Of a DNA stretch of 64,000 nt, positions 16,125 through 48,744 are shown one piece after another (position 1 is the stretch's first letter; each line of letters starts with the position of its first letter). This DNA is from Rhodobacterales bacterium (GTDB lineage Bacteria; Pseudomonadota; Alphaproteobacteria; Rhodobacterales; Rhodobacteraceae): the NCBI GenBank assembly GCA_002747035.1, contig PDRZ01000018.1, forward strand, positions 62,001 through 126,000, given 5' to 3'. The translations under genes and the position numbers were made by a program. The notes under the pieces are model-generated. The model was not told where the DNA came from. It made no database searches and saw nothing but the letters and a program-made list of their open reading frames with translations.

Positions 16125-16239
16125 CTAAAGCGTCCTGCCAAAACCCTGACTCACGGGTTTTGGCAGAACACGCGCAACACATAAATGTCGCGCTGCGTTC
16201 GCCCTTTTCCTGTCTCAGGTTAAAGGTCGAACGCTTTAG
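16125..16239. repeat. Dispersed repeat family A, copy 1
   Basis: This is a 115-base element bounded by CTAAAGCG and CGCTTTAG. It contains a hairpin (GTCCTGCCAAAACCC ... GGGTTTTGGCAG), then CACATAAATGTCGCGCTG, then CTGTCTCAGGTTAAAGGTCG. Nearly identical copies lie at 41832-41948 (inverted) and 48631-48744 (same orientation). It ends 6 bases from the yraN stop. Confidence 0.92.
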
Positions 16240-16245
16240 GCGAAG

Positions 16246-16662
16246 TCAGAAAAAACCAAACGCATTTTCGTGGATTTCAATCTGCCCTGTCCCATCCACA
16301 AGCGCCACGTCAAAGCGCAGTTCGGTCAGCGACCCGTTGGGTTCGTTGCCGATAAACTCTTCTGCCGCCCCGTATATCCGGCGCATCTGTGCCTCGCTCA
16401 AATGGGACGCGGCACTTGCAAAGCTGCCGCTTTGCTTGACTTCGACAAACACCAACGCCGCCCCATCCCGCATAACAAGGTCGATTTCGCCGCGCGACCC
16501 ACGCCAGCGGCGCGCGGTTGCAACAAACCCCCGTCGTTCATAATCCTGTGCGACGCGTTGTTCCGCGGCCTCTCCGGACAAAAAGGCCCGGCGCCCCCGA
16601 TGGCGACGCGCCGCAACCGGCCTGGCCTGTTCAAACCCTTTGGGATCACATATCGCCGTCAT
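16246..16662 (-). CDS. yraN: YraN family protein (UPF0102, endonuclease fold)
   Basis: This 138-residue protein is of the UPF0102/YraN family, which has a PD-(D/E)xK nuclease-like fold. The core is visible as RGEIDLVMRDGAALVFVEVK, with the acidic residues and lysine in the expected spacing. An upstream helix (GEAAEQRVAQDYERRGF) precedes it. The biochemical role of the family is not settled. The ATG at 16662 overlaps the end of rsmI by 17 bases. The E. coli order rsmI(yraL)-lpoA(yraM)-yraN is echoed here with an LpoA-like gene divergent on the other side of rsmI. Confidence 0.9.
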   Translation of the reverse strand: MTAICDPKGFEQARPVAARRHRGRRAFLSGEAAEQRVAQDYERRGFVATARRWRGSRGEIDLVMRDGAALVFVEVKQSGSFASAASHLSEAQMRRIYGAAEEFIGNEPNGSLTELRFDVALVDGTGQIEIHENAFGFF

Positions 16663-17569
16663 CCTGTTCCCTTTCCGAACCACCCGCGCCAGATTCCGCG
16701 TCGTTCCGTTCCGCATCCTGTGAAATCGCGAGGGCCCGTTGATATACCTGTCGCCGTTTGACCCCGGTCCGTGCCGCCACGATATCCGCAGCGTCCCGTA
16801 CCGACGCATGTTTCAACGTTTCTTTTAGCACACTATCAATGTCCAAGCAGTTAACGCCCACCTCCTGCCCCTGCCCGACCACGACGACGATTTCACCTTT
16901 CAGCGACCGGCTGCTCAGGGTTTCGGCAAGCTCTGCAAGGGTTCCGGTCAGGATTTCCTCGAATTTCTTGGTCAGTTCGCGGCAAATCGCGACCTGACGG
17001 GTTTCGCCCAGAACCTCTGCGGCATCCCGTATCATGGCCGCGATTCGCTTGGGTGATTCGTAAAAAATCAGCGTTCCCGGCACCTCTGACAGCTCCTTCA
17101 GCGCAGATTTTCGCTTACCGCTGCTATTGGGCAGGAAGCCGTTGAACGTGAAACGATCCGTGGGCAGTCCTGACAGGGTCAGCGCGGTAATCACCGCCGA
17201 GGGCCCTGGCGCAGAGACCACCACATGCCCATCGCCGCGCGCCGCGCGGGCAAGGTCAAACCCGGGGTCCGCCACCATGGGCGTGCCTGCCTCGGCCCCG
17301 TAGGCCACGGATTTACCCTCGGCCATCATGGCCAGAAGCCGTGGGCGCACCCGGTCACCGTTATGGTCGTGATAGGAAATCACCGGCCGGTCCGCCAACG
17401 CAACTCCGTGGATTTCGAGCAGGCGGCGCATGGACCGTGTATCCTCGGCGGCAATGACATCGGCACTGGCAAGGATGTCCAGCGTGCGCAACGTGATGTC
17501 TCGCGCGGTGCCTATGGGGGTTGCGACAAGGTACAGGCCCGGCTCAAGTTTCACGGTTTTCGGATTCAC
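16646..17569 (-). CDS. rsmI: 16S rRNA (cytidine-1402 2'-O)-methyltransferase
   Basis: This SAM-dependent enzyme methylates the 2'-hydroxyl of C1402 in the ribosomal P site. Its 307 residues form a tetrapyrrole-methylase fold: LVATPIGTARDITLRTLDIL near the N-terminus, AEDTR, SYHDHN, GTPMVADPG and APGPSAVITALTLSGLP. The translation starts at GTG 17569 in a weak context (GGGGTCC upstream). It overlaps yraN by 17 bases, so the two form one unit, and is divergent from the LpoA-like lipoprotein gene. Confidence 0.95.
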   Translation of the reverse strand: MNPKTVKLEPGLYLVATPIGTARDITLRTLDILASADVIAAEDTRSMRRLLEIHGVALADRPVISYHDHNGDRVRPRLLAMMAEGKSVAYGAEAGTPMVADPGFDLARAARGDGHVVVSAPGPSAVITALTLSGLPTDRFTFNGFLPNSSGKRKSALKELSEVPGTLIFYESPKRIAAMIRDAAEVLGETRQVAICRELTKKFEEILTGTLAELAETLSSRSLKGEIVVVVGQGQEVGVNCLDIDSVLKETLKHASVRDAADIVAARTGVKRRQVYQRALAISQDAERNDAESGAGGSEREQDDGDM

Positions 17570-17688
17570 TACTGGACCCCATGAATGACACGTTTATTAT
17601 CGCCGCCGAAACCGGTGCGAAGGGATGTACGCCCCGTGACACGCCCGAAACACCAAGGCCCGACACGAAGGGGAGTAAGAAGTTGTCC

Positions 17689-18909
17689 ATGTTTGCTGTT
17701 TTCAATTCATTTCGCAAGGGTCCGCTGCACAAGATGCGCACCGGCTCCGCTCGTCTTCTTGCAGCCGCTTCGATCGCGCTGGTCGCGGCCTGTGAACCGA
17801 TTGCGCTGGGCGGGCTGGGGGGTGGCAACCCCAATTCGGGTCAGATGATCGACCCGACCCAACCCGTACCCGTGGCATTGCTGGTCCCCCGTGGGTCGGG
17901 CAATGGCACCGACGACACCCTTGCCCAGAACCTTGAAAACGCGGCGCGCCTGGCCATGGCCGATCTGGATGGCGTGAAAATCGACCTGCGGGTTTATTCC
18001 ACCGCCGGAAATGCCGCCAAGGCACAGACAGCGGCGCTTCAGGCGGTGAATGACGGTGCCCTGATCATCCTGGGTCCGGTCTTTGGCGAAGCGGCCAATG
18101 CCGCCGGGGTCGCGGTGGCCAGCAAGAACGTGAACGTTCTGGCCTTTTCCAACAACGCCACCATTGCCGGGGGCAACGTCTTTGTGCTTGGCCCCACCTT
18201 TGACAACATCGCCAACCGGCTGACCCAGTTTGCCCGCAAACAGGGCAAGAGCCGCATCCTCGTGGTGTCCTCGGACAATGCTGCCGGGCAACTGGGCAAC
18301 GCCGCGATCCAGAAGGCGATCGCCCGCAACGGGGCCACCCTTGCCGGTGCCGTATCCTATGAATTCAGCCAACCGGGCGTGATCGCTGCCGTACCGAAGA
18401 TCAAGGCCGCGGCGGTCGCGGGCAATGCCGATGCGATCTTCATGACCTCGAACACCGCCGGATCGTTGCCGCTGTTTTCGCAAATGCTGCCCGAGGCCGG
18501 AATCGGCCCGGACGTGGCCCAGTATATCGGCCTGACCCGCTGGGACATCCCGGCCCAGACCACATCGCTCCCCGGGGTGCAAGGCAGCTGGTTCGCCCTG
18601 CCCGACCCGAACAAATCCGCCGCGTTCTCGTCGCGTTACAATGCCGCCTATGGCAGCAGCCCGCACCCGATTGCCGGGCTGGCCTATGACGGCATCGCCG
18701 CCATTGGTGCGCTGGCCAAGGCGGGCAAGCGCGACGCGCTGACCCATGCGGCCCTGACCCAGGGCGCGGGCTTCCAGGGGGCCACAGGCATCTTCCGCCT
18801 GCGCCCGGACGGAACCAACCAACGCGGGCTGGCCGTGGCCCAGATCAAGAACAAAAAGGTTGTCGTGATCGACGCGGCACCCGGTTCCTTTGCAGGTGCG
18901 GGATTCTGA
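17689..18909 (+). CDS. Penicillin-binding protein activator, LpoA/LppC-like lipoprotein
   Basis: This 406-residue protein has a lipoprotein signal (lipobox LVAAC, about 35 residues in) and a periplasmic-binding-protein type I fold of the LppC/LpoA C-terminal kind. Characteristic pieces are VPVALLVPRGSG, IILGPVFGEAANAAGVAVASKNVNVLAFSNN and AYDGIAAIGALAK. In enterobacteria LpoA stimulates PBP1A from the outer membrane. Here it is shorter, lacking the N-terminal TPR-like domain. A TTG at 17683 has better spacing to the GGGGAG site than the ATG at 17689, and either may be used. Its stop overlaps the glnD start (TGATG). Confidence 0.85.
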   Translation: MFAVFNSFRKGPLHKMRTGSARLLAAASIALVAACEPIALGGLGGGNPNSGQMIDPTQPVPVALLVPRGSGNGTDDTLAQNLENAARLAMADLDGVKIDLRVYSTAGNAAKAQTAALQAVNDGALIILGPVFGEAANAAGVAVASKNVNVLAFSNNATIAGGNVFVLGPTFDNIANRLTQFARKQGKSRILVVSSDNAAGQLGNAAIQKAIARNGATLAGAVSYEFSQPGVIAAVPKIKAAAVAGNADAIFMTSNTAGSLPLFSQMLPEAGIGPDVAQYIGLTRWDIPAQTTSLPGVQGSWFALPDPNKSAAFSSRYNAAYGSSPHPIAGLAYDGIAAIGALAKAGKRDALTHAALTQGAGFQGATGIFRLRPDGTNQRGLAVAQIKNKKVVVIDAAPGSFAGAGF

Positions 18910-21728
18910 TGACACCCACCAAAGACACGGCGACCGGTCTTTTCCTCGCTGATCTGCCCGACGCTCCTGAAAACCTGGTCTGTGATGCAGACCAGGTTTT
19001 TGATCGTAAGGCCATCTGTGCGGCGCTGACCAAAGCGGCGCGCGAGGCGAAGGATGAAACCGACCTGCGCCGCGCCGCTGTCGATCTTCTGGGCACGGCC
19101 CGCAAGAACGGGTTTGCCGCCATCGAAGCCGGGTTTCTCGCCGCGCCCTTTGATGCGCGCCCCGCCACACGGGCCTATACCTGGCTCAGCGATTGCATCA
19201 TTGGCTGCACCTTCCGGCTGGTCACCACCTTTGCCCACCCCATCGGCGACGCGACCGGGGATGTCGGGAAGACCAACGGGGACGAACAAATCGCGCTTCT
19301 TGCCGTTGGCGGCTATGGGCGGGGCGAAATGGCACCGCAATCGGATGTGGACCTGCTTTTCCTGAGCCCGCGGGAAATCACGCCGCGCGCGGAAAAGATT
19401 ATTGAATCCATGCTCTACATCCTGTGGGATCTGCGGCTCAAGGTGGGCCACGCAAGCCGCACGGTGCGCGACTGTGTCCAACTTGGGCACGAAGACTTCA
19501 CCATCCGCACCGCCTTGCTGGAAAGCCGGTTCCTGATCGGTGATGAAACGCTGGCGAAAGAGCTGGACAAAACCCTGCGGCGCGAGCTTTTCAAAGGCAC
19601 CGCGCGCGAATTCATCGAGGCCAAGCTGGCCGAACGCGATGCCCGCCACCTCAAGCAGGGCCAGCGTTACGTGGTTGAACCCAATGTAAAAGAGGGCAAG
19701 GGCGGGCTGCGTGACCTGCAATCGCTGTTCTGGATCGCCAAATACCTTTACGGCGTTGATGACGTGGCCGAACTGGTCGATCTGAAACTGTTTACGCCGG
19801 AAGAGTTTTCCCAATTCGAACGGGCCGAGAATTTCCTGTGGGCCGTGCGCTGTCATCTTCACCTCGTGACCCGGCGCGCCACCGAACAGCTGACCTTTGA
19901 CATGCAGGTCGAAGTGGCCGAACGCATGGGTTATGCCGACAAGAGCGGGCGCCGCGCGGTGGAACACTTCATGCAGGACTATTTCCGCCACGCCACCCGC
20001 GTGGGCGATTTGACCCGGATTTTCCTGACCAAGCTGGAAGCGACCCATGCCAAGGGCAAGGCGCTGCTGGAGCGGCTGTTCAAACGCCGCCGCAAGTTGA
20101 AGGCGGGTTACAAGGAAGTGCATGGCCGACTAGCCATCGACAATGAAAAGAAATTCCTGTCCGACCCGCTGAATCTTCTGCGGCTGTTCGAAGAGGGGTT
20201 GCGCACCGGCATGTTGATCCACCCGGACGCCATGCGGTTGGTGACGGCAAATCTTGACATGATCGACGACGCGCTACGCGCGGACAAGGTCGCACAACGG
20301 ATCTTTCTTGACCTGTTGTTGAAACACGGCAACCCGGAACGGGCGCTGCGGCGGATGAACGAACTGGGCGTGTTGTCCGCCTTTATCCCCGAATTCGAAC
20401 CCATCGTGGCGATGATGCAGTTCAACATGTATCACTCCTATACCGTGGATGAACACACCATCCAGGTGATCTCGAATCTCGCACAGATCGAACGCGGTGA
20501 GCTGGATGACGAATTGCCGGTTTCGGCGGAAATCCTGCGGGCCGGGCTTAATCGCAAGGTGTTGATGGTGGCCATGCTGCTGCATGACATCGGCAAGGGG
20601 CGCGATGTGGACCATTCTGTGCTGGGGGCCCAGATCGCGCGCAAGGTGGCTCCGCGTCTTGGCTTGTCCAGGGCGGAATGCGACACGGTCGAATGGCTGG
20701 TGCGCTATCACCTGTTGATGTCGGACATGGCCCAGAAACGCGACATTTCCGACCCGCGCACGGTGCGCGACTTCGCCAAGGCGGTGGGCAGCGTCAAACG
20801 GCTTGACCTTCTGCTGGTGCTCACCGTTTGCGATATTCGCGGCGTGGGGCCGGGCACCTGGAACAACTGGAAGGCCGCTCTGCTGCGCGCGCTGTACAAA
20901 CACACCCGCATGGCGTTGGAAGATGGGGTCGAGGCAACAAGCCGCGAATTGCGCGGCAACGAGGCCAAGAAACTGTTGCGCGCCGAATTGTCCGACTGGG
21001 ACCCGGCCGAGCTGAAACGTGAAACCGGGCGCCATTACGACCCCTATTGGCAGGGGCTGCACATCACCGCGCACAAGGTGTTTGCCGAACTGCTGCGCGA
21101 CATCGACGACGGTGAAATCCGCATTGACCTGCACCCGGACATTGATCGCGACGCAACCCGCGCCTGTTTTGCCATGGCCGATCACCCCGGTATCTTTTCG
21201 CGTATGTGCGGGGCGCTGGCGCTTGTGGGGGCCAATATCGTCGATGCGCGCACCTTTACGTCCAAAGACGGCTACGCCACCGCCGCCTTCTGGGTTCAGG
21301 ACGCCGACGGCCACCCGTTCGAAGCCCGCAAGCTCAAGCGACTGGAACAGATGATCCACAAGACCCTGAAAGGCGAAGTGGTGGCGCGCGAGGCGATGCT
21401 GAACCGCGACAAGTTCAAGAAACGTGAAAAAGCGTTCCGTGTGCCCACCACCATCACCTTCGACAATGAAGGGTCCGAAATTTATACGATCATCGAGGTG
21501 GACACCCGCGACCGTCCCGGCCTGCTTTACGATCTGACCCGGACGCTGGCCGATGCCAATGTCTATATCGCCTCTGCGGTGATCGCGACCTATGGGGAAC
21601 AGGTGGTGGATACCTTTTATGTCAAGGACATGTTCGGGCTGAAATTCCATTCGGAAAGCAAACAGAAAACGCTTGAAAAGAAACTGCGTGAGGCCATCAT
21701 ACAGGGCGTTGAACGCGCCAACGCCTGA
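18909..21728 (+). CDS. glnD: [Protein-PII] uridylyltransferase / uridylyl-removing enzyme
   Basis: This is the glutamine sensor of the nitrogen regulatory cascade. It uridylylates PII proteins when glutamine is low and removes UMP when it is high. The 939 residues are full length. The nucleotidyltransferase motif is GGYGRGEMAPQSDVDLLFL (about 137-155), the HD domain is LLHDIGKGRDVDHS (about 558-571), and two C-terminal ACT domains bind glutamine (about ADHPGIFSRMCGALA and DTRDRPGLLYDLTRTLA). It overlaps the lipoprotein gene by 1 base and a CBS-domain gene follows 43 bases downstream. Confidence 0.98.
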   Translation: MTPTKDTATGLFLADLPDAPENLVCDADQVFDRKAICAALTKAAREAKDETDLRRAAVDLLGTARKNGFAAIEAGFLAAPFDARPATRAYTWLSDCIIGCTFRLVTTFAHPIGDATGDVGKTNGDEQIALLAVGGYGRGEMAPQSDVDLLFLSPREITPRAEKIIESMLYILWDLRLKVGHASRTVRDCVQLGHEDFTIRTALLESRFLIGDETLAKELDKTLRRELFKGTAREFIEAKLAERDARHLKQGQRYVVEPNVKEGKGGLRDLQSLFWIAKYLYGVDDVAELVDLKLFTPEEFSQFERAENFLWAVRCHLHLVTRRATEQLTFDMQVEVAERMGYADKSGRRAVEHFMQDYFRHATRVGDLTRIFLTKLEATHAKGKALLERLFKRRRKLKAGYKEVHGRLAIDNEKKFLSDPLNLLRLFEEGLRTGMLIHPDAMRLVTANLDMIDDALRADKVAQRIFLDLLLKHGNPERALRRMNELGVLSAFIPEFEPIVAMMQFNMYHSYTVDEHTIQVISNLAQIERGELDDELPVSAEILRAGLNRKVLMVAMLLHDIGKGRDVDHSVLGAQIARKVAPRLGLSRAECDTVEWLVRYHLLMSDMAQKRDISDPRTVRDFAKAVGSVKRLDLLLVLTVCDIRGVGPGTWNNWKAALLRALYKHTRMALEDGVEATSRELRGNEAKKLLRAELSDWDPAELKRETGRHYDPYWQGLHITAHKVFAELLRDIDDGEIRIDLHPDIDRDATRACFAMADHPGIFSRMCGALALVGANIVDARTFTSKDGYATAAFWVQDADGHPFEARKLKRLEQMIHKTLKGEVVAREAMLNRDKFKKREKAFRVPTTITFDNEGSEIYTIIEVDTRDRPGLLYDLTRTLADANVYIASAVIATYGEQVVDTFYVKDMFGLKFHSESKQKTLEKKLREAIIQGVERANA

Positions 21729-21771
21729 ACGCGACGCCAAGACGACGACCAGACAAGGAAAGACCGGTAAC

Positions 21772-22197
21772 ATGACCACAACCCTGCGCAACATTCTGGG
21801 CGACCGTCCGGTTCACAGCCTGCCTCGCGACGCAACCGTGGCCCGGGCCGCGCGAATGATGACCGAAAACCGCGTCGGCGCGCTGGTCGTGCTGGACGGC
21901 GACACGCTTGTGGGCATCGTCACCGAACGCGATGTGGTGTTCCGCTGTGTCGGTGTGGACCGCAGGCCCGACACCACGACCGTGGCCGACATCATGACTG
22001 CCGACCCGGTGACCATCGACATCAACGACGCCGTGTCCAACGCGCTCGCGGCCAAGCTGGGCAATAACTTCCGCCACCTGCCGGTGATGGAGAACGGGCG
22101 GATCGCCGGGCTCTTGTCCTTCCGCGATATCCCGGCGGAATATGTCATGCTTTATGAACGTTTCCGCGAAATGACCATGTCCCGCGCCGATTCCTGA
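21772..22197 (+). CDS. Two-CBS-domain protein
   Basis: This 141-residue stand-alone protein has a pair of CBS domains: residues about 8-65, with LVVLDGDTLVGIVTERDVVFR, and about 73-128, with LPVMENGRIAGLLSFRDI. Such modules bind adenosyl ligands (AMP, ATP, SAM) and usually regulate a partner. No partner domain is attached. I chose the ATG at 21772, with an AAGGAAAG site, 43 bases after glnD and in the same direction, which suggests co-transcription. It ends in a convergent arrangement with the SMP-30-like gene, with a hairpin between. Confidence 0.9.
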   Translation: MTTTLRNILGDRPVHSLPRDATVARAARMMTENRVGALVVLDGDTLVGIVTERDVVFRCVGVDRRPDTTTVADIMTADPVTIDINDAVSNALAAKLGNNFRHLPVMENGRIAGLLSFRDIPAEYVMLYERFREMTMSRADS

Positions 22198-22239
22198 TCG
22201 CCGCGCGCGAAAATACCCGGCAACACGGCCCGGTAACAC

Positions 22240-22263
22240 GGTTTGTGCGAAGGTTTGTGCGAA
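22240..22263. repeat. Tandem 12-mer x2
   Basis: The 12-mer GGTTTGTGCGAA occurs twice with no gap, in the convergent gap after the CBS gene. The role is unknown. Confidence 0.8.
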
Positions 22264-22295
22264 ACGGACCCGCGCCTCTGCTGTAAACAGGGCAC

Positions 22296-22319
22296 GCCGG
22301 GGGATGAATACCCCCCGGC
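22296..22319. terminator. Bidirectional-type hairpin between convergent genes
   Basis: GCCGGGGG and CCCCCCGGC pair around ATGAATA. It lies between the ends of the CBS gene (plus) and the SMP-30-like gene (minus), 14 bases from the latter's stop. There is no U tract. Confidence 0.55.
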
Positions 22320-22333
22320 ACTGGTCTCATGTC

Positions 22334-23416
22334 TCATTCGGGGATCAACACCCCAAGATCAGGTTCCGTGAGGGACGACACGTAAAGCCGACCATCCGGC
22401 CCTTCGATCATGCCAGTGGTCAGCGCATAGGCACCGCTTGGGTCCTGCATCGTCTCCAACACCTTACCGGTGTCGTCGATGCGGATCACGAACCCGTATC
22501 TCTTTGGCTTGGGCCGGGCCTCGGCGGGCAGCCGTTGCACCACCTTGCGCAGGAACGGTTTGCTGGCCAACACATCCATAGCATCCGACCGCGGGCTGAC
22601 CAGTCCAACCCAGAACGTGCCGTCCGGGTTGCGGTTGATATTGTCGGGAAAGCCCGGAAGGTTTTCGACGATCTTCTCGGCCTTGCCTCCCCCCGCCACG
22701 GGCAGTTTCCAGATGGCATAGGTCCCGGTTTCCACCACCAGCACATGCGCCCCATCCGCCGTCAACGCGATACCGTTGGCAAAACTCAGACCCGTATGGA
22801 AAACCGACACCGCGCCGGTCGCCGGGTCATATTTCAACACGCGGCCATGGGAGCCATGATCCATCAGATCCAACAGGCTGGCCTGCAACGTGCCACCCCA
22901 CTCTTCGGCCCCGAACATGGTAGAGGCATCCGAGAAATAGATCGTGCCATCGGCCGCGATATCAAGGTCATCGGCATATTTGATCGCTTTGCCATCGGGC
23001 ATGGTGTCGGCCAGCACCTCGATGTCACCGGACGCGGTCAGACGCAGCAACCCGCGATAGGCGTCCGCGATGTACAGCAACCCGTCCGGTCCGAATTCCA
23101 CCCCCAGAGCCCGCCCGCCGGTGCGGGCAATTTCGCTGACACTGCCATCGGTGGGATCATACCGCAGGATCGCCCCGTCATGGGTGGGCATGTAAAGCCT
23201 GCCGTCAGGGCCAAAGGCCACATCCTCGGGGCCAGAATGGTTGCCAATATCCACCCGTTTGATGCCGGACAGCCGGTCATTGGGGGCAAAGTCTCCGACA
23301 TACCCGGCGTTTTCCGGGGCGTCCCAGGCCACCGGATCAATCGGCACGGGCCACAGGCACAGATAGGCCGCCCCGGCCACGATGACCATACCCAACAGAC
23401 GTCTGATCGCTTTCAT
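22334..23416 (-). CDS. SMP-30/strictosidine-synthase-like beta-propeller protein
   Basis: This 360-residue protein has one N-terminal membrane anchor or signal (LLGMVIVAGAAYLCLWPVP). It is followed by propeller repeats of the SMP-30/gluconolactonase/strictosidine-synthase-like superfamily, seen as repeated GPDGRLYM, GPDGLLYIAD, AADGTIYFSD and GPDGRLYVSS blades. The closest type is the membrane-anchored APMAP/SSL group with lactonase or arylesterase-like activity. The substrate is unknown. The ATG at 23416 follows AGGAGGG, a strong ribosome-binding site. The upstream open frame to 23590 overlaps the murJ promoter region and is not used. Confidence 0.85.
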   Translation of the reverse strand: MKAIRRLLGMVIVAGAAYLCLWPVPIDPVAWDAPENAGYVGDFAPNDRLSGIKRVDIGNHSGPEDVAFGPDGRLYMPTHDGAILRYDPTDGSVSEIARTGGRALGVEFGPDGLLYIADAYRGLLRLTASGDIEVLADTMPDGKAIKYADDLDIAADGTIYFSDASTMFGAEEWGGTLQASLLDLMDHGSHGRVLKYDPATGAVSVFHTGLSFANGIALTADGAHVLVVETGTYAIWKLPVAGGGKAEKIVENLPGFPDNINRNPDGTFWVGLVSPRSDAMDVLASKPFLRKVVQRLPAEARPKPKRYGFVIRIDDTGKVLETMQDPSGAYALTTGMIEGPDGRLYVSSLTEPDLGVLIPE

Positions 23417-23599
23417 TTTTCCCTCCTGCTCACCATTCTGCTCACCATTGCGACAAGCATGGCTTGAGTATGCCGCGAAACGCAAGGATGACGTGTTATT
23501 CCGTTGGGTCGGAAATATCCGCGCAAACGGCCGAACCCCGCCATTTCCCCTAGGCGGTCCATGTTCTATAAGGCAGGAAACAAAGGACACGAGCAGCCC

Positions 23600-25144: not shown

Positions 25145-25169
25145 GGACCACGCCGCCATTAAGCCGCCA

Positions 25170-25220
25170 TTAAAGCGTTTCCGCATTACGTTGACTCAGC
25201 GTGATTTGGAAACGCTTTAA
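25170..25220. repeat. Palindromic repeat, family C, copy 2
   Basis: Arms TTAAAGCGTTTCC (25170-25182) and its complement (25208-25220) enclose a 25-base spacer. The arm sequence is shared with 266-320 and with the half copy at 53508-53522. It lies 25 bases after the murJ stop. Confidence 0.85.
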
Positions 25221-40668: not shown

Positions 40669-40727
40669 CTGAGTTCCCCTCGTTTCCGAATGAGAACACA
40701 ATTAGAACATATTGGTTAATGGTCCCG

Positions 40728-40755
40728 GAATCCTGCGCACGCAAGCGCAGGATTC
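40728..40755 (-). other. Hairpin at the luxR 3' end
   Basis: GAATCCTGCGC and GCGCAGGATTC pair perfectly around six bases and overlap the luxR stop codon. No U tract follows on the minus strand. It may attenuate or process the luxR-luxI transcript rather than terminate it. Confidence 0.5.
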
Positions 40756-41482: not shown

Positions 41483-41627
41483 CGATCAAACCTTCCCGTT
41501 GGGATGCAATCTCGCCCGCCGCAACCAAAGCCGTGTCTTCCAACTGTTCGGCCAGTGCATTAAGACCATTTGCTTGCGCAAATGTCCTCAGGTCCGCGAG
41601 AACATCCAATATCCAGTCATTTTTCAT
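41418..41627 (-). CDS. Small conserved-type protein upstream of and overlapping luxR
   Basis: This 69-residue ORF starts MKNDWILDVLADLRTFAQANG and continues NALAEQLEDTALVAAGEIAS, two clear amphipathic helices followed by a less ordered tail. It is the promoter-proximal reading frame of the luxR unit and overlaps luxR by 65 bases in another frame, so the two may be translationally coupled. I believe similar short proteins accompany luxR genes in other roseobacters, but no function is known to me. A DNA-bending, chaperone or regulator-binding role is possible and untested. A CtrA box sits 23 bases upstream. Confidence 0.65.
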   Translation of the reverse strand: MKNDWILDVLADLRTFAQANGLNALAEQLEDTALVAAGEIASQREGLIVDANNAGGRTRADTGGVGTGL

Positions 41628-41649
41628 GTCGATCCTCGCCTTCGAGTGG

Positions 41650-41665
41650 TTAACAAAGTATTAAC
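41650..41665 (-). promoter_or_regulatory. Perfect CtrA box upstream of the luxR unit
   Basis: TTAACAAAGTATTAAC is an exact TTAA-N7-TTAAC match. It lies 23 bases upstream of the small ORF that precedes luxR. Links between quorum sensing and CtrA are established in Dinoroseobacter and Rhodobacter; control here is inferred. Confidence 0.7.
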
Positions 41666-41780
41666 TACAGCCTAGCATATGGAAACTTTTTGCAAAATTC
41701 GCGCATTTCAACTCCCCAGAAATAGGGAGAGCCAAAATTATAACGATTTGAAATCACACAAATGGGTGCAAAACAGCAAC

Positions 41781-41812
41781 CGCCCGTGAATGGCCTTAGC
41801 GATTCACGGGCG
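41781..41812. other. Hairpin between ccr and luxR
   Basis: CGCCCGTGAAT and ATTCACGGGCG form a perfect 11-bp stem with a 10-base loop. There is no U tract on either side. The function is unknown. Confidence 0.5.
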
Positions 41813-41831
41813 ATCATGAGTATCAGGTCTG

Positions 41832-41948
41832 TTAAAGCGTTCGACCTTTAACCTGAGACAGGGCAAAGAGCGAACACAGCGCGACAGTTATGTGTTTCGC
41901 GCGTCCTGCCAAAAACCCGTGATTCAGGGTTTTGGCAGGACGCTTTAG
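41832..41948. repeat. Dispersed repeat family A, copy 2 (inverted)
   Basis: This is a full-length copy in the orientation opposite to 16125-16239. It begins TTAAAGCGTTCGACC and ends with the hairpin arm GGCAGGACGCTTTAGG. It ends 7 bases from the ccr stop codon, so the hairpin half could serve as a ccr terminator. Confidence 0.92.
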
Positions 41949-41954
41949 GGACGC

Positions 41955-43244
41955 TTACTTCTTCCCGGCTTCCAAAACATCCTCAACAGTGCGCAAGCCG
42001 GTCGTCGGGGCCTGAACCAGAACCGCCATGTTGCCGGGCTTGTGCTCGTTGCGGTACATTTTCATGTGCGCGTCCGGAATTTCGGACCAGGGGAACACTT
42101 CCGACATGCACGGATCAAGACGACGCTCAACCATCAACTGGTTCGCGGCCGCGGCCTGTTTCAGGTGGGCAAAGTGCGACCCTTGCAAACGCTTCTGATG
42201 CATCCAGACATACCGCACGTCAAAGGTACAGTTGAACCCGGTGGTGCCGGCGCAGATCACGACCATGCCGCCCTTTTTACAGACAAAGGAGCTCACCGGG
42301 AAAGTTGCCTCGCCGGGGTGTTCAAAGACGATGTCGACGTTATTGCCTTTGCCGGTGATGTCCCAGATGGCTTTGCCGAACTTGCGGGCTTCCTTGAACC
42401 ACTCGGCATATTCCGGGGTGTTCACCGTGGGCAGTTGGCCCCAGCAGTTGAAGTCCTTGCGGTTCAGAACGCCCCTGGCACCAAGCCCCATGACGAACTC
42501 GCGCTTGTCCTCTTCCGAGATCACGCCGATTGCGTTGCCGCCTGCCGCATTGATCAACTGGATCGCATAGGAGCCCAGACCGCCCGACGCGCCCCAGACC
42601 AAGACGTTCTGACCGGGCTTCAGCTCGTGCGGGTGGTGACCGAACAACATACGGTACGCAGTCGCAAGCGTCAGCGTATAACAGGCCGACTCTTCCCAGG
42701 TCAGATGCTTGGGACGCGGTAACAGCTGTTGTGCCTGCACATTTGTGAACTGGGCAAAAGACCCGTCGGGGGTTTCATAGCCCCAGATCCGTTGGCTGGG
42801 CGAATACATCGGGTCGCCACCGTTGCAATGTTCGTCATCACCATCGTCCTGGTTACAATGGATCACGACCTCGTCGCCTACTTTCCAGTTCTTGATCTTG
42901 TCACCCACGGCCCAGACGATGCCCGAGGCATCGGACCCAGCAATGTGATAATCCTGTTTATGAACGTCGAACATGCTGACCGGCACGCCCAGACCGGCCC
43001 AGATACCGTTATAGTTCACGCCAGCGGCCATCACCAGAACCAGAACTTCGTGGCTGTCCAGCTTGGGTACATCGACCACTTCGACCTGCATGGCCTGATT
43101 GGGTTCTCCCTGCCGTTCGCGGCGGATCGCCCATGCATACATCTGCTTGGGGACATATCCCAACGGGGGCATTTCGCCCACTTCATAAAGATCCTTTTCA
43201 GGCGCTTCGTAGGGTGCAATACCCGTTTCGTTATCCAAGGCCAT
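41955..43244 (-). CDS. ccr: Crotonyl-CoA carboxylase/reductase
   Basis: This is the key enzyme of the ethylmalonyl-CoA pathway: NADPH-dependent reductive carboxylation of crotonyl-CoA to ethylmalonyl-CoA, which allows growth on acetate and other C2 units without glyoxylate bypass. The 429 residues match Ccr of Rhodobacter. It is an MDR (zinc-type alcohol-dehydrogenase-like) fold with cofactor loop VWGASGGLGSYAIQL and Ccr-specific stretches such as HCNQDDGDDEHCNGGDPMYS and FEHPGEATFPVS. The ATG follows GGAGG. It is oriented opposite to ecm, with a PlsB-like acyltransferase and a decayed gene between. Confidence 0.97.
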   Translation of the reverse strand: MALDNETGIAPYEAPEKDLYEVGEMPPLGYVPKQMYAWAIRRERQGEPNQAMQVEVVDVPKLDSHEVLVLVMAAGVNYNGIWAGLGVPVSMFDVHKQDYHIAGSDASGIVWAVGDKIKNWKVGDEVVIHCNQDDGDDEHCNGGDPMYSPSQRIWGYETPDGSFAQFTNVQAQQLLPRPKHLTWEESACYTLTLATAYRMLFGHHPHELKPGQNVLVWGASGGLGSYAIQLINAAGGNAIGVISEEDKREFVMGLGARGVLNRKDFNCWGQLPTVNTPEYAEWFKEARKFGKAIWDITGKGNNVDIVFEHPGEATFPVSSFVCKKGGMVVICAGTTGFNCTFDVRYVWMHQKRLQGSHFAHLKQAAAANQLMVERRLDPCMSEVFPWSEIPDAHMKMYRNEHKPGNMAVLVQAPTTGLRTVEDVLEAGKK

Positions 43245-43354
43245 ATCTACCTCCGTTTGGTGTCACTTGCCGCAACGCAGAATCGCGGCGCTTGCCCAAG
43301 GAGATATCGACGGGCGCGCAACAATGCAATGCCGCTTCCGCCGTTTTTGAAACT

Positions 43355-44758
43355 TTATAACCTCGCAGGCGCAGAAAGTTCCGCCACGTCACGCTGCACT
43401 GGCGAAATTAAGTGGCTGATCGACGCCGCGTAAAACTCTGCAATGTGGTGTTCCGTATCGTTGAGAACAATTCCGGCATCGGTTTTCCGCAGGATGTCAC
43501 CTTGTGACAATCCCCGCACCCCCACCTTAACCACATAGGCCGGGTCCCCCCTTGGTACATGTACATGCGCATTGCGCAGTTGTTCCATCAACTCTCTGAC
43601 CCCCGCTTCCAATGTTTCCAGCGGAATCGCTTTTTTCTGACGCAGCATGACGGTCGCCACCAACGGCACAGGCAGAACAGGAACTTCCTCCCCAATCCGA
43701 TCCATCAACTCACGGGCCAGGTTCTCGACTACCTCACCGGGATATTCGCGCATGAAATCATGTAACAGGACCGGCGCGCCAAAGCTTACTGCGGCATAGC
43801 CAAACCGGTGATATTTTCCGCGCAGTCGCAACCAGAGCTGTTTTATAATGAAACGGACCACCACGGATATCCGGGCGTGAAAACGCCGCTCTCCGGCCTG
43901 ATTTGCCGCGACGAGGATGCGATCTTCGAACACCCTGTCATAGTTCAACGCCACGGGGACAAAGGCGACATCGCGCGAGTCGGCGTCATGCCCGTCCACG
44001 ATATACTTGAGAATACCCAGCTTTGGCTCGGCCAATGCACCATCAAGCGAAAGCCCGCCTTCGGGAAATAAGGCCTGCATGACCCCTGCATCCGTCGCCA
44101 GCCGCACGTAGCGCGCCAAGACCCGGCGATACAACCCATCACGGGATTTGCGCCTGATGAAATAGGCTCCCATCGCCTTGATCAACCGGCTCAGAGGCCA
44201 GACCCGCGCCCACTCTCCGACCGCATAAGACAGGGCACTGTTTTCCGCCGCCAGATAGGTGACAAGCACGTAATCCATGTTGCTTCGGTGGTTCATCACG
44301 AACACAATCGTAGTTTCACGGTCAATCCGATCCAGCGCCTCCTGATCGTAATGCCCCAGCCGCACACGATACATGGATTGGCTGATGAACCGCGCCAGAC
44401 GGATGGCAACGCCATAGTAGAGCGACGCGCTGAACGAAGGGACAATTTCACGGGCATAGCGTTGCGCCAGTTCAAAGGCGACGTTCTCCGGCACCCCTTC
44501 GTCACGCGCATGATCGGCAATGGCGCGAGACACGTCGGGGTCATAGATCAACCTTTGAATCATGTCGTGACGCCGGGCCAGTTTGAAAGGTTGGATCGGG
44601 CGTTCCAGCCGTTCGTTCAGCCGTGTCACCACCTTCTCCATCCGCCGACGGAAATACCAGCGCACCGAAGGAAACATCACCCGTTCGATTGCGGCGAAAA
44701 TGGCAAACCCCAACAAGGGAACGAAAAGCCACAGGGGAATAGAGATTGTGTCCGTCAT
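43355..44758 (-). CDS. PlsB-like glycerol-3-phosphate/lysophospholipid acyltransferase
   Basis: This 467-residue membrane-associated acyltransferase has one N-terminal hydrophobic helix (LWLFVPLLGFAIFAAIE), the HX4D catalytic block NHRSNMDY, and the substrate-binding FPEGGLS. The arrangement resembles the PlsB/GPAT group more than the small PlsC proteins. The likely reaction is transfer of an acyl group to glycerol-3-phosphate or a lysophospholipid in phospholipid synthesis. It lies 110 bases upstream of ccr, same direction, so co-transcription with ccr is possible. The specific acceptor is not certain. Confidence 0.88.
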   Translation of the reverse strand: MTDTISIPLWLFVPLLGFAIFAAIERVMFPSVRWYFRRRMEKVVTRLNERLERPIQPFKLARRHDMIQRLIYDPDVSRAIADHARDEGVPENVAFELAQRYAREIVPSFSASLYYGVAIRLARFISQSMYRVRLGHYDQEALDRIDRETTIVFVMNHRSNMDYVLVTYLAAENSALSYAVGEWARVWPLSRLIKAMGAYFIRRKSRDGLYRRVLARYVRLATDAGVMQALFPEGGLSLDGALAEPKLGILKYIVDGHDADSRDVAFVPVALNYDRVFEDRILVAANQAGERRFHARISVVVRFIIKQLWLRLRGKYHRFGYAAVSFGAPVLLHDFMREYPGEVVENLARELMDRIGEEVPVLPVPLVATVMLRQKKAIPLETLEAGVRELMEQLRNAHVHVPRGDPAYVVKVGVRGLSQGDILRKTDAGIVLNDTEHHIAEFYAASISHLISPVQRDVAELSAPARL

Positions 44759-44830
44759 GGGTGCGCACTACTGCTTTGGGTGTTTGGGGGTCTGCCCCGG
44801 ATTGATCACAGCATTAAGAGTACCCCAAAT

Positions 44831-45277
44831 ATGAGACGTCCCGCCATGGTTCTTTCCCTCTTTCTGCCTTTCGCAGCTCAAGCTCAGGACTGTGCCACGT
44901 CTGCCGATATGAAAAAGGGAATCAAAGTCATATATGAAATCGACCGAAGCCGAATTTTTATTGAAACTTTTCCGAACCTTGGCAAGAGCATTGTTCGGTT
45001 AAACAGCTAGACCAACTCCAACTATGGGACCGTGCGGTTGATGTCCGATCACGTGGGCGGCATGTTCCCCACCGGGGCCACGACCTTTGATCGCAAGGAC
45101 AAGGTTCTGGCGCGGTCCACCATGGAATACGGGCCCGGCATCCTCAGGAAGCTGATCCTGACCAACGGCACCCGGGTTGCGTTCAGCGTGACCAGCACGA
45201 ACTGGATCGCAGCCAACCGCAAGACGCGACCTCAAACCCATCACCCTGTCCCATATAGCCAAACGACACAATTCTGA
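44831..45277 (+). pseudogene. Decayed secreted-protein gene with in-frame TAG, 3' end replaced by repeat B
   Basis: The ATG at 44831 begins a signal peptide (MVLSLFLPFAAQAQDCAT), and the frame is interrupted by TAG at 45008-45010. The same frame continues open for 88 more codons (TVRLMSDHVGGMFPTGATTF ... RVAFSVTSTNWIAANRK) to a TGA at 45275, with protein-like content on both sides. The last dozen codons lie inside repeat B (45253-45362), so the native C-terminus is missing. This looks like an exported protein of unknown function inactivated by a point mutation and truncation. A terminator that may have belonged to it remains at 45493-45518. Confidence 0.7.
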
Positions 45278-45362
45278 TTGTGTCTTTTGATTATAAGTCT
45301 CTGATTTTACGCTGATACTTCGTGGATTATGGAATCAAAACCCGCTCCCGTCAGCTATACCT
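45253..45362. repeat. Dispersed repeat family B, copy 1 (inverted)
   Basis: A 110-base copy, reading on the plus strand from ATATAGCCAAACGACACAAT to GTCAGCTATACC, is the reverse complement of the copies at 53016-53126 and 58875-58995. It carries an internal hairpin of the ATAGCCAAA/TTTGGCTAT type. It covers the 3' end of the decayed gene. The rest of the 340-base gap up to ecm has no supported gene. Confidence 0.9.
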
Positions 45363-45492
45363 ATCGTTTCCGGGGGCGTCAGACCCTGCGCCTGCGCCAA
45401 TCCAATGGCGGTTCGTATCGCGGGACGGGATACACCGTATATAAGGGAAGCTCGGACCGGGCCAGGAAACACTTTAGTCGAAACCCGACGTC

Positions 45493-45518
45493 AAAGCGCC
45501 CTCACCCGGGCGCTTTTT
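45493..45518 (+). terminator. Intrinsic terminator upstream of ecm
   Basis: AAAGCGCCC and GGGCGCTTT pair perfectly around TCACCC, with five T in a row at the end. No intact gene precedes it; it probably belonged to the decayed gene now separated by repeat B. Confidence 0.85.
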
Positions 45519-45541
45519 CATTTGCGCCGCAGCGCAGCGAA

Positions 45542-45571
45542 TTGACAGCGCCACAAAATTCCAAGTATCAA
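45542..45571 (+). promoter_or_regulatory. Sigma70-type promoter of ecm
   Basis: A perfect -35 TTGACA (45542-45547) is followed after 18 bases by TATCAA (45566-45571), placing transcription start about 40 bases before the ecm ATG. It stands directly after the terminator. Confidence 0.6.
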
Positions 45572-45617
45572 CACTCTAACGAAAGAAAATTACCGCCACC
45601 GATTCACGAGGCCCCCC

Positions 45618-47597
45618 ATGTCGCAGATGCAGCAAGAGACCAAGAAAGACCGCCCGTGGTTGATCCGCACCTATGCCGGACACTCGACCGCCGCCGCCTC
45701 TAACGCGCTTTACCGTGCCAACCTGGCCAAGGGCCAGACCGGGCTTTCCGTGGCTTTCGACCTGCCCACCCAGACCGGGTATGACAGCGACCACGTGCTG
45801 GCCCGTGGTGAAGTGGGAAAAGTTGGCGTTCCCGTCTGTCACCTTGGCGATATGCGCAGCCTGTTTGACCAGATCCCTCTGGAACAGATGAACACCTCGA
45901 TGACCATCAACGCCACCGCCCCGTGGCTGTTGGCACTTTACATCGCGGTGGCCGAAGAACAGGGCGCGGATGTGTCCAAACTTCAGGGGACAGTACAAAA
46001 CGATTTGATTAAGGAATACCTAAGCCGGGGCACGTATGTCTGCCCGCCCAAGCCATCGCTCAAGATGATCGCGGATGTGGCCGAGTATTGCTATACCAAC
46101 GTGCCCAAATGGAACCCGATGAACGTGTGTTCCTATCACCTGCAAGAGGCGGGTGCGACACCGGAACAGGAACTGGCCTTTGCGCTGGCCACTGCCATCG
46201 CGGTTCTGGACGAGCTGCAACCGCGCGTTCCGGCCGAGGATTTTCCGGCGCTGTGCGGGCGGATTTCCTTCTTCGTCAACGCGGGCATCCGCTTTGTCAC
46301 CGAGATGTGCAAGATGCGTGCCTTTGTGGACCTTTGGGATGAAATCCTGCGCGACCGCTATGGTGTAGAAGACCCGAAAATGCGCCGGTTCCGTTATGGG
46401 GTTCAGGTGAACTCGCTTGGGCTGACCGAACAACAGCCTGAAAACAACGTCTATCGCATCCTGATCGAAATGCTGGCCGTGACCCTGTCGAAAAAAGCCC
46501 GTGCCCGCGCGGTGCAGTTGCCGGCCTGGAACGAGGCGCTTGGCCTGCCCCGTCCCTGGGATCAGCAATGGTCGATGCGGATGCAGCAGATCATGGCATA
46601 CGAGACCGACCTGCTTGAATACGAAGACCTTTTTGACGGCAATCCGGCAGTCGATGCCAAGGTCGAGGCGCTCAAAGAGGGCGCGCGGCACGAGCTGGCC
46701 AACCTGGACGCCATGGGCGGTGCCGTGGCGTCGATCGAATACATGAAATCGCGTCTGGTGGATTCCAATGCCGAACGGTTGAACCGCATCGAAGCAGGCG
46801 AAGTCACCGTGGTGGGCGTCAACCGCTGGACCGAAGGCGAACCATCGCCGTTGATGACCGGCGATGGCGGCATCATGACCGTGGACCCCGCAGTTGAGGC
46901 CGAACAGGTCGACCGTTTGAACGAATGGCGCGCCGAGCGGGACGAAGACGCGGTCAAATCCACGCTGGCCGATCTGCGCGAGGCGGCAAAGTCGGGTGCC
47001 AATGTCATGGGCCCCTCGATTGCCGCCGCCAAGGCCGGTGTGACCACCGGCGAATGGGCCGCGCAAATGCGCAGTACCTACGGAGAATATCGTGGTCCCA
47101 CAGGGGTTTCCGCATCCGTTTCGAACAAGACCGAAGGTCTGGACGACATCCGCGCGGCGGTGGACGAGGTCAGCGACCGTCTGGGTCGCCGGTTGAAATT
47201 CGTGGTCGGCAAACCCGGGCTGGACGGCCATTCCAACGGTGCCGAACAGATCGCCTTCCGCGCACGCGATTGCGGAATGGACATTGATTACCAGGGTATC
47301 CGCCTGACCCCGGAAGAGATCGTCACAGCCGCACAGGAGCAGGACGCCCACGTGGTTGGACTGTCGATCCTGTCCGGCAGCCACATGCCCCTGGTCGAAG
47401 AGCTGATGACCCGGATGCGCGACGCCGGGCTTGGTCATGTGCCTGTGATCGTCGGCGGCATCATCCCCGATGATGACGCCAAACACCTTCTGGAACAAGG
47501 GGTTGCCCGGGTTTACACGCCCAAGGATTTCGAATTGAACGCAATCATGATGGACATCGTGGCCATGGTTGACCCAGCAGCGCAAGCCGCTGAGTGA
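45618..47597 (+). CDS. ecm: Ethylmalonyl-CoA mutase (B12-dependent)
   Basis: This coenzyme-B12-dependent mutase converts (2R)-ethylmalonyl-CoA to methylsuccinyl-CoA in the ethylmalonyl-CoA pathway. Its 659 residues comprise a methylmalonyl-CoA-mutase-like barrel (FDLPTQTGYDSDH, MNTSMTINATAPWLLALY) and a C-terminal cobalamin domain. That domain has the base-off DxHxxG motif (GLDGHSNGAEQ), SGSHMPLVEEL and GGIIPDDD. Its linkage to ccr and the MeaA-like single-chain size favour Ecm over methylmalonyl-CoA mutase. It has its own promoter and a GAGGCCCCCC leader before the ATG. B12 supply may involve cobU in the same window. Confidence 0.95.
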   Translation: MSQMQQETKKDRPWLIRTYAGHSTAAASNALYRANLAKGQTGLSVAFDLPTQTGYDSDHVLARGEVGKVGVPVCHLGDMRSLFDQIPLEQMNTSMTINATAPWLLALYIAVAEEQGADVSKLQGTVQNDLIKEYLSRGTYVCPPKPSLKMIADVAEYCYTNVPKWNPMNVCSYHLQEAGATPEQELAFALATAIAVLDELQPRVPAEDFPALCGRISFFVNAGIRFVTEMCKMRAFVDLWDEILRDRYGVEDPKMRRFRYGVQVNSLGLTEQQPENNVYRILIEMLAVTLSKKARARAVQLPAWNEALGLPRPWDQQWSMRMQQIMAYETDLLEYEDLFDGNPAVDAKVEALKEGARHELANLDAMGGAVASIEYMKSRLVDSNAERLNRIEAGEVTVVGVNRWTEGEPSPLMTGDGGIMTVDPAVEAEQVDRLNEWRAERDEDAVKSTLADLREAAKSGANVMGPSIAAAKAGVTTGEWAAQMRSTYGEYRGPTGVSASVSNKTEGLDDIRAAVDEVSDRLGRRLKFVVGKPGLDGHSNGAEQIAFRARDCGMDIDYQGIRLTPEEIVTAAQEQDAHVVGLSILSGSHMPLVEELMTRMRDAGLGHVPVIVGGIIPDDDAKHLLEQGVARVYTPKDFELNAIMMDIVAMVDPAAQAAE

Positions 47598-47745
47598 ACG
47601 GCATTCACGGGGCTGAGTTGCGCGGATTCCAAGGTCGGGTTCTCCGCCCCTGAATTTGCCGAACCTGGCTTGGCCAAGCGACTTTTCTTCATACGCGATC
47701 GCGGTTAACCTCGGACCCCGAGACGTCAGAAAAGAGCCACAGAAC

Positions 47746-48453
47746 ATGACCATCCATATAGGTGCCCAACCGGGTGAAATTGCCGAAACCGTATTGATGC
47801 CGGGGGATCCCCTGCGGGCGAAATGGGCGGCGGAAACGTTTTTACAAGACGTCAAATGTGTCAATGAAGTCAGGGGGATGTATGGGTTCACGGGGACCTG
47901 GAACGGCAACCCCGTGACGATTCAGGGCAGCGGAATGGGGATGCCGTCCCTGTCGATCTATGCCAACGAGTTGATCCGGGATTACGGGGCGAAAACGTTG
48001 ATCCGCATCGGCTCCTGTGGCGCGATGCAGACCCATGTGGGCATTCGCGACGTGATCATCGCAATGACCGCCTCCACCCTGTCCACCCCGTCACGGGGCA
48101 TTTTCAAAGAACTGAATTTCGCCCCTTGCGCAGATTATGGACTGTTGCGTGCCGCCGTATCGGCGGCTGAAACCCGCGACGTGTCCACCCATGTGGGCGG
48201 CATTTATTCCGCAGATGTGTTTTACGACGAACGTCCTGATTTAAATGAACAAATGACCCGCCATGGCATTCTGGGCGTGGAAATGGAGGCGGCCGAGCTT
48301 TACAATGTGGCCACCCGTTACGGGGCGCGGGCGCTTGCTGTTTTGACCGTGTCCGACCACCTTTTAACCGGCGACGCGCTGCCCAGCGATCAGCGGGAAC
48401 GCAGCTTTGGCGACATGGTCGAAATCGCGCTGGAGGCCGCGTTCCCTCAGTAG
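47746..48453 (+). CDS. deoD: Purine nucleoside phosphorylase, DeoD type
   Basis: This hexameric, low-specificity phosphorylase of purine salvage splits purine (deoxy)ribonucleosides to base and sugar-1-phosphate. The 235 residues match DeoD. It opens [27 protein letters not shown] and contains [24 protein letters not shown] and [10 protein letters not shown], the family hallmarks. I chose the ATG at 47746; the frame extends to 47656 without support. It complements the nucleoside-type BMP importer at 31-36 kb. The stop overlaps a LysR remnant on the other strand by 7 bases. Confidence 0.96.
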
Positions 48454-48605
48454 CGCACATAACTGATCCAGCGCTGCGCCAGCGCCACCGGCGACACGCC
48501 AAGCTCTTGTGCCGCCTTGGAAAACCCACCCAGCCGCGCCGCGCTTTCAAAGGCGCGCAACGCGTTCAAGGACGGCCCACGCGAGCGGGGTGGATTAATG
48601 GTCAT
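48447..48605 (-). pseudogene. Truncated LysR-type regulator (helix-turn-helix only)
   Basis: The frame encodes 52 residues. SLNALRAFESAARLGGFSKAAQELGVSPVALAQ matches the N-terminal helix-turn-helix of GcvA-like LysR regulators, which are normally about 300 residues. It then ends in an unrelated ISYVRY tail and TGA. The dimerisation helix and the whole effector domain are absent. The remnant faces deoD tail-to-tail, and its start is 26 bases from repeat A copy 3. It probably lost its downstream part by deletion, and a regulatory role is unlikely. Confidence 0.75.
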
Positions 48606-48630
48606 GACATAAGCCCCGGTTTTTCTAGCC

Positions 48631-48744
48631 CTAAAGCGTCCTGCCAAAAACCTGAATCACGGGTTTTCGGCAGGACGCACGAAACACATAAATGTCGCGC
48701 TGCGTTCGCCTTTTTCCCTGTCTCAGGTTAAAGGTCGAACGCTT
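48631..48744. repeat. Dispersed repeat family A, copy 3
   Basis: This is a 114-base copy in the same orientation as 16125-16239, from CTAAAGCGTCCTGCC to GGTCGAACGCTT. The last CGCTTTAG is changed to CGCTTGAG. It lies just upstream of the LysR remnant and about 90 bases before the SHMT-like gene. Confidence 0.92.

What the first reader, a model, noticed from the sequence alone, without database searches (positions are those of the whole stretch)
16125..48744. Dispersed ~115-bp repeat family A with conserved hairpin
Three full copies (16125-16239, 41832-41948 inverted, 48631-48744) share boundaries CTAAAGCG...CGCTTTAG, an internal GTCCTGCCAAAA hairpin, CACATAAATGTCGCGCTG and CTGTCTCAGGTTAAAGGTCG. 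A hairpin-only version sits after kdsA (5013-5065). Full copies lie 6-7 bases from the stops of yraN and ccr, and next to the LysR remnant. This is too conserved and too modular for chance. It may be a non-autonomous mobile element, a REP-like element or a structured RNA.
Basis: seen in the sequence. Interest (0 to 1): 0.75.

Follow-up and report, generated by a model that had tools for sequence, protein, structure and literature searches.

The report
Hairpin-ended mini-transposons of Rhodobacterales bacteria
The repeats are tiny jumping DNA elements without genes of their own, about 115 bases long and able to fold into three hairpins, which most likely spread by borrowing the enzyme of a larger known jumping element and often sit in the stop signals of genes.

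Summary
The window holds three full copies and three one-arm derivatives; the 2.5 Mb draft genome holds at least 44 full copies of this family (A) and a sister family B with the same plan but other letters. They are best read as non-autonomous transposons (MITEs) of the IS630 family. Nested copies and filled/empty plasmid sites fit a 2-bp TA duplication; the target is mostly Y-TA-R. All 10 plasmid IS630 loci fetched have a related right end 15 bp past the transposase stop; 7 show a left end. Each arm is a transposon end followed by its own inverted copy, which the 6 IS630 folded lack. Across 26 representatives the arms changed letters but stayed paired (27 of 36 pairs changed on both sides). 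25 of 93 insertions sit exactly in a TAA/TAG stop codon, which the element rebuilds. The anatomy matches the description of alphaproteobacterial CIR repeats (two arms, linker, TA ends, GANTC at a tip), whose mobility a 2007 review left open; CIR letters could not be compared. No intact mover was found in the host draft, and transposition was not observed. A new variant of a known kind.

The parts
16126..16238 (+). Full family-A element (113 bp, TA to TA; left end at 16126, right end at 16238)
16130..16171 (+). Arm 1: left transposon end plus its inverted copy (hairpin; tip TGACTCA holds GACTC, a GANTC site)
   Evidence: fold; resemblance to IS630 left ends
16172..16193 (+). Arm 2: short central hairpin (linker)
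16195..16234 (+). Arm 3: right transposon end plus its inverted copy (hairpin)
41833..41947 (-). Full family-A element (115 bp), inverted; 7 bp from the end of the ccr-like ORF (41955)
48632..48746 (+). Full family-A element (115 bp); last TA decayed to GA
268..318 (.). One-arm palindrome TA..TA = arm 1 of sister family B
5013..5065 (.). One-arm palindrome = arm 1 of family A; terminal TA decayed to TG/CA
25171..25219 (.). One-arm palindrome TA..TA = arm 3 of family B
   Evidence: (G000:C23:87171-87219)

Best explanation
The repeats are miniature, gene-less derivatives of IS630-family transposons, moved in trans by an IS630-type DDE transposase. The transposase recognises the outer ~28-31 nt of both ends (left TAAAGCG...AACCTGAATCAC, right TAAAGCG...TTAACCTGAGRCA), inserts mostly at Y-TA-R and duplicates TA. 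Each end continues into an inverted copy of itself, so each end is a long hairpin; a short third hairpin joins them. Loss of one arm by deletion between the GCG/CGC triplets that border the arms leaves 46-56 bp one-arm palindromes. Insertions survive mainly between genes or exactly in stop codons, because the element begins with TAA at either end and so restores the stop. Shown: multicopy, ends shared with IS630, 2-bp duplication by length, filled and empty sites, arm covariation between lineages. Inferred: trans-mobilisation, the deletion route of the one-arm forms, and the reason the arms stay paired (most likely a need during transposition, such as doubled transposase-binding sites or extruded ends, since compensation is strong between lineages and weak among copies in one genome).
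For: Copies: at least 44 full A copies; by my reading of the 49 rows, 22 A, 23 B, 1 C and 3 nested double counts. Duplication: nested insertions whose host sequence is known give the right length only if one TA is removed (L130 and L132; L022); two abutting pairs share one TA (L133, L136). Eight Aliiroseovarius crassostreae plasmid records: modC-phosphatase site 6 filled, 2 empty, length difference 113 = 115-2; TamB-katG site 7 filled, 1 empty, difference 114. Target: at -1 C or T in 83 of 93 and G in none, at +1 G or A in 82 of 93 and C in one. Partner: all 10 plasmid IS630 loci fetched have TA[AG]AGC ... CATA as right end 15 bp after the CDS, 7 of 10 a left end (one of the three misses, L252, was not properly searched because its annotated CDS starts late); the host has an IS630 remnant whose right end matches the B right end at 28 of 30; a Rhodovulum locus has a right end matching A at 27 of 28 next to a short IS630-like frame (by eye). 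Arms: 73 of 93 loci found by the outer right-end strand alone have the inner strand (at least 14 of 18 pairs) against 0 of 93 shuffles; on 26 representatives 87.1% of cells pair against 72.9 shuffled and 36-43 slid, 27 of 36 pairs changed on both sides. Stop codons: 25 of 93 against 5.8 expected for motif-matched TA sites.
Against: No intact partner transposase was found in the host draft (77.7% complete), only remnants, and no partner with the A left end was found. The empty alleles carry CA (site 1) or diverged letters (site 2) instead of TA, one filled record (S202) has itself lost the left TA, and the direction (insertion or loss) is unknown. One nested case (L128) does not give a clean length. 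The 26 representatives had been filtered for arm pairing (132 of 172 candidates kept; 26 of the 29 resulting clusters used) and the tested structure was voted from them. The plasmid IS630 loci are not all intact (L252, L255, L257, L258 have short or split CDS). Transposition was not observed.
Confidence: 0.88

Rival explanations
1. Structured RNA elements kept by the host, for example 3' mRNA stabilisers or terminators, spread by recombination.
For: Stable folds (z -6 to -10 for the four folded); copies near gene ends; within family A stems change less than unpaired sites (0.044 against 0.065 per site and copy) and two-sided changes slightly exceed shuffles (10 against 6.2).
Against: Within family A most one-sided changes break the pair (117, of which 32 still pair). 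No orientation preference (9 of 17 co-directional A copies, my reading). 2-bp duplication, shared transposon ends and nested copies show transposition. No Rfam match in the window.
Confidence: 0.06
2. REPIN-like elements moved by a REP-associated tyrosine transposase acting on single-stranded hairpins.
For: Two inverted hairpins with a spacer; one-arm forms beside two-arm forms.
Against: 2-bp duplication, symmetric target, ends shared with IS630. No GTAG-type tetranucleotide at the hairpin foot, by eye. A search for a REP-type transposase was not made.
Confidence: 0.02
3. They are IS630 MITEs, but the arm covariation is no selection for structure: template switching inside an imperfect palindrome (quasipalindrome correction, recalled) copies one strand of the arm onto the other, or whole arms are exchanged.
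For: Arms are near-perfect palindromes; chimeric and one-arm forms exist; a slight excess of two-sided paired changes within family A (8 against 3.6 in shuffles).
Against: That excess is small, so correction does not seem frequent after insertion. Arm tips stay alike across many lineages while the stem bases differ, which exchange of whole arms would not give.
Confidence: 0.3

Closest known systems
CIR, CcrM-associated intergenic repeats of Caulobacter, Brucella and other alphaproteobacteria (Chen and Shapiro 2003, known to me only through Delihas 2007, PMC2229807, section 4 and part 1 of section 5)
   Same: About 110 bp, two hairpin arms joined by a linker, TA at the ends, GANTC at an arm tip, many copies.
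   Different: Here GANTC is frequent but not universal (own A left tip 28 of 33; other genomes 50 of 85; own B/C left tip 2 of 14, right tip 8 of 14), a third hairpin lies in the linker, and copies are not strictly intergenic by mechanical ORF calls. The review lists the target duplication with a question mark and the mechanism of mobility as open; here an IS630 partner and a TA target are supported. Letters of CIR1-4 could not be compared.
RUP of Streptococcus pneumoniae (107 bp; IS630-Spn1)
   Same: MITE thought to be moved by an IS630-family transposase at TA targets (Delihas 2007, PMC2229807).
   Different: Other phylum; that review says repeats other than CIR have no separate arms.
Correia/NEMIS and ERIC elements
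   Same: Short MITEs with target duplication, TA at the ends and strong hairpins (PMC2229807).
   Different: Stem-loop formed by pairing of the two ends instead of separate arms, according to that review.
IS630-family insertion sequences of Rhodobacterales plasmids (L251-L258)
   Same: Left and right ends, TA flanks.
   Different: About 1.06 kb with a transposase gene; the 6 folded do not form a hairpin from the terminal GCG inward, though L256's left end has an internal 10-bp stem.

Membership tests
MITE of the IS630 family | Short, multicopy, no transposase gene | tested here: met
   113-116 bp in 38 A copies; at least 44 A copies
MITE of the IS630 family | 2-bp TA target duplication | tested here: met
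   Nested copies, one filled/empty site differing by 113 bp; met by length, but the empty alleles carry CA or diverged letters and the second site differs by 114 bp
MITE of the IS630 family | Ends shared with IS630 transposase-bearing elements | tested here: met
   Right end 10 of 10 (the two Rhizobiaceae ones diverged, TAGAGC), left end 7 of 10
MITE of the IS630 family | Mobilised in trans by the IS630 transposase | not testable with these tools
   Needs a transposition assay
CIR repeats | Two hairpin arms joined by a linker, about 110 bp, TA at the ends | tested here: met
CIR repeats | Conserved GANTC at an arm tip | tested here: inconclusive
   Own A 28 of 33, other genomes 50 of 85, own B/C left tip 2 of 14, right tip 8 of 14
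CIR repeats | Sequence similarity to published CIR1-4 | not tested
   Source paper not held
CIR repeats | Strictly intergenic | tested here: inconclusive
   19 of 93 fall inside a mechanically called ORF of at least 100 aa, 25 of 93 in stop codons, 49 between ORFs; ORFs not curated
REP/REPIN | No target duplication; 5' tetranucleotide plus hairpin (features recalled) | tested here: not met
   2-bp duplication and IS630 ends
REP/REPIN | REP-type Y1 transposase in the genome (recalled) | not tested
   No search made
Known RNA family | Match to an Rfam model | tested here: not met
   0 matches in the window at gathering thresholds

The most novel reading that the evidence does not exclude
An ancient lineage of two-armed mini-transposons spanning the Alphaproteobacteria, the CIR repeats included, lives off IS630 transposases. 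Its hairpin ends are kept by compensatory change because the transposase handles doubled or extruded ends, and a CcrM site (GANTC) that is part of the IS630 left end times transposition to the passage of the replication fork, as Dam sites do for IS10 (recalled).
Probability: 0.22. Interest if true: 0.75.

Novelty: new variant of a known kind. Interest (0 to 1): 0.58.

Why it matters
It offers a likely mover for a kind of alphaproteobacterial repeat whose mobility a review listed as open, and a possible reason why such repeats carry CcrM sites: GAATC lies in 6 of the 7 IS630 left ends found and in none of 10 right ends (my reading). The arms are a case where covariation suggests that a mobile element's shape, and not only its end letters, is inherited. 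The stop-codon niche suggests how more than 90 counted copies (44 A, 23 B, 1 C, about 26 one-arm) are tolerated in a 2.5 Mb draft genome.

Tried and rejected
Blast of A and B copies in plasmid records: no match; a Roseovarius-type region matched 2 records and a Brevirhabdus-type copy 10 records. Same-genus genomes: none held besides the host. B consensus at family level: 6 of 394 genomes, host included, with only 2 candidates scored per genome. Viral contigs: no match to the right-end pattern. The generic end pattern at family level matched 52 of 394 genomes, but many are single chance hits (the reversed control is of like size) and the list of matches was cut; by eye I recognised structured elements in 11 genomes, host included. 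Class-level model search: 5 other genomes of 289 matched weakly (only 12 candidates scored per genome, strict filters); by eye 4 look two-armed and L265 looks like chance. RAMA/CcrM domain: not found in the host draft, found in 10 of 10 relatives with the element. One search misoriented part of the copies and is discarded in favour. The left-tip parse reached only 14 of 38 copies and is replaced. A first count of pairs failed on string length and was redone. Three of 29 clusters (c03, c11, c28) were left out.

Full report
Observation. Aligning 30 genome copies with flanks shows that conservation runs from TA-AAGCG to CGCTT-TA and stops there. In 46 copies (38 A, 8 B) the 5' dinucleotide is TA in 41 and the 3' one in 39. 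Family A has at least 44 full copies, window copies included: 40 scored in each (of 88 and 85 candidates), their union being 43 by my count, plus one more seen.

A sister family and one-arm forms. The pattern TAAAGCGN{90,118}CGCTTTA gave 49 forward matches against 2 for the control; by my reading 22 A, 23 of a second family B, one of a third (C), and 3 nested double counts. B has the same plan (end, hairpin, short hairpin, hairpin, end) with other letters. The short pattern gave 30 against 2: by my reading 18 B arm-3 palindromes, 5 B arm-1, one A arm-1, one A arm-3, one A chimera, and 4 decayed, chance or double rows. Window examples: 268-318, 25171-25219 and, with decayed ends, 5013-5065.

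Target duplication. Copies inserted in other copies give internal empty sites. In L130 a C element interrupts an A copy; removing it with one TA leaves GACCTTTATCCTGAG against the consensus GACCTTTAACCTGAG. In L132 the arms of the host copy are of equal length only if one TA is counted. In L022 the host is a one-arm B. Two abutting pairs share one TA (L133, L136). L128 is not clean. Eight plasmid records of Aliiroseovarius crassostreae are polymorphic: at modC-phosphatase six are filled and two empty, differing by 113 bp, with CA in the empty allele where filled ones have TA (five of the eight aligned, where filled S202 has lost its left TA); at TamB-katG seven are filled and one is empty, differing by 114 bp with diverged letters at the junction (three aligned). 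Whether the empty alleles are ancestral is not known.

Target site and stop codons. For 93 insertions with intact ends (24 full and 13 one-arm in the host; 55 full and 1 one-arm in named genomes) the base before TA is C or T in 83 and never G, the base after is G or A in 82 and C once. Twenty-five lie exactly in a TAA/TAG stop codon of an ORF of at least 100 aa, 49 between ORFs, 19 inside. For TA sites matched by motif 5.8 stop sites and 52.1 inside sites are expected, or 9.7 stop sites among the 74 non-coding insertions. ORFs were called mechanically and sites were reconstructed assuming one TA.

Partner. A DDE_3 search of 11 genomes with the element found matches in 5, over the curated cut-off in 3. 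Among them are an internally deleted IS630 in G244 flanked by TAAAGCGTTTCGCGTT ends and, in the host, a remnant ending in TAAAGCGTTTCCGCATTATGTTGACTCAGG, which matches the B right end at 28 of 30. A second host remnant is interrupted by a B copy. On plasmids a piece of the G243 transposase found 968 records. I fetched 10 of them, not all intact: all 10 have a right end TA[AG]AGC...CATA 15 bp after the CDS; in the eight from Rhodobacterales it begins TAAAGC, in the two from Rhizobiaceae TAGAGC. Seven have a recognisable left end such as TAAAGCGTTTCGAAGAAAACCTGAATCGC, 81-85 bp before the start of the reading frame as I set it (L252 was not properly searched for a left end). Left and right ends differ in the same way as arms 1 and 3 of the repeats. 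The 6 folded do not form a hairpin from the terminal GCG inward; L256's left end has an internal 10-bp stem. Rhodovulum L186 has a right end matching A at 27 of 28, next to a short frame that resembles the IS630 C-terminus by eye and is interrupted by another transposase-like ORF.

Spread. The right-end pattern found 93 stretches in genome contigs, by title mostly Rhodobacterales: Roseovarius, Aliiroseovarius, Celeribacter, Sulfitobacter, Pelagivirga, Yoonia, Shimia, Rhodovulum, Loktanella, Brevirhabdus, Rhodophyticola and others; 3 of 93 are in bins labelled Verrucomicrobia or only Alphaproteobacteria. Of these 93, 76 close at 114-119 bp (116 in 55, 115 in 18, 114 in 2, 119 in 1); 73 have the inner arm strand at 14 or more of 18 positions, against none of 93 shuffles, whose best is 13. 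A model built from 26 representatives found weak matches in 5 other genomes of 289 across the class, 4 of them two-armed by eye with TAAAGC or TAGAGC ends; an exact end pattern was not enriched in those 5 genomes (19 against 62 for the control), so reach beyond the family is a lead only.

Covariation. On the 26 representatives (26 of 29 clusters, one from a bin labelled Verrucomicrobia) 36 pairs in three helices are 87.1% paired, 27 pairs have changes on both sides and 128 cells are doubly changed, against 47.7 in shuffles; slid structures pair at 36-43%. The set was filtered for arm pairing (132 of 172 kept) and the structure was voted from it, so one search is the fairer test. Within family A (38 copies) the picture is weaker: 117 one-sided changes, 32 still paired, and 10 two-sided, 8 paired, against 6.2 and 3.6 in shuffles; stems change at 0.044 and unpaired sites at 0.065 per site and copy. 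Compensation is thus strong between lineages and slight among resident copies, which points to a need in propagation. This is inference; palindrome correction remains a rival.

CcrM. GANTC is at the left tip in 28 of 33 own A copies and 50 of 85 others, at the right tip in 1 of 33 and 1 of 85, with a background of 1.4% of 13-mers in the window; B/C differ (2 of 14 left, 8 of 14 right) (orientation assigned by script, copies that passed the arm filter only). By my reading GAATC is in 6 of the 7 left ends found. A RAMA-domain protein is in 10 of 10 relatives (one, L287, read as CcrM by eye) and not found in the host draft.

Literature. Delihas 2007 (PMC2229807: abstract, section 4 and part 1 of 2 of section 5 seen) describes CIRs and RUP as cited above. 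Seen in passages only: PMC10969869, PMC2267715, PMC3646047, PMC11578231, PMC2573895, PMC3973325, PMC5172544. In the listings I saw no description of these elements or of an IS630 partner for CIRs; most subscription papers are not held.

Noticed in passing
window 45253-45377, 53015-53126, 58874-58995: A third repeat family, about 105-110 bp with TATAGC...GCTATA ends and what look like two arms of its own; 38 match rows in the host genome, ten copies aligned. It may be another two-armed TA-ended MITE.
   Followed up: partly
L149 1288-1402 (G000:C6:70139-70253): A family-B copy sits in an IS630 transposase remnant: a MITE inserted in a relative of its possible mover.
   Followed up: partly
L169, L175, L215, L219, L220, L250 (Sulfitobacter): A different, roughly 105-bp element with the same right end and no separate arms.
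   Followed up: no
L104, L112, L121 (G145, G213, G312): About 105-bp elements with TAAAGCG ends and another middle part.
   Followed up: no
L131 (G000:C44:17768-17832): A one-arm B palindrome lies beside a TAAAGCGTGTCGAGAT sequence, perhaps a decayed older element.
   Followed up: no
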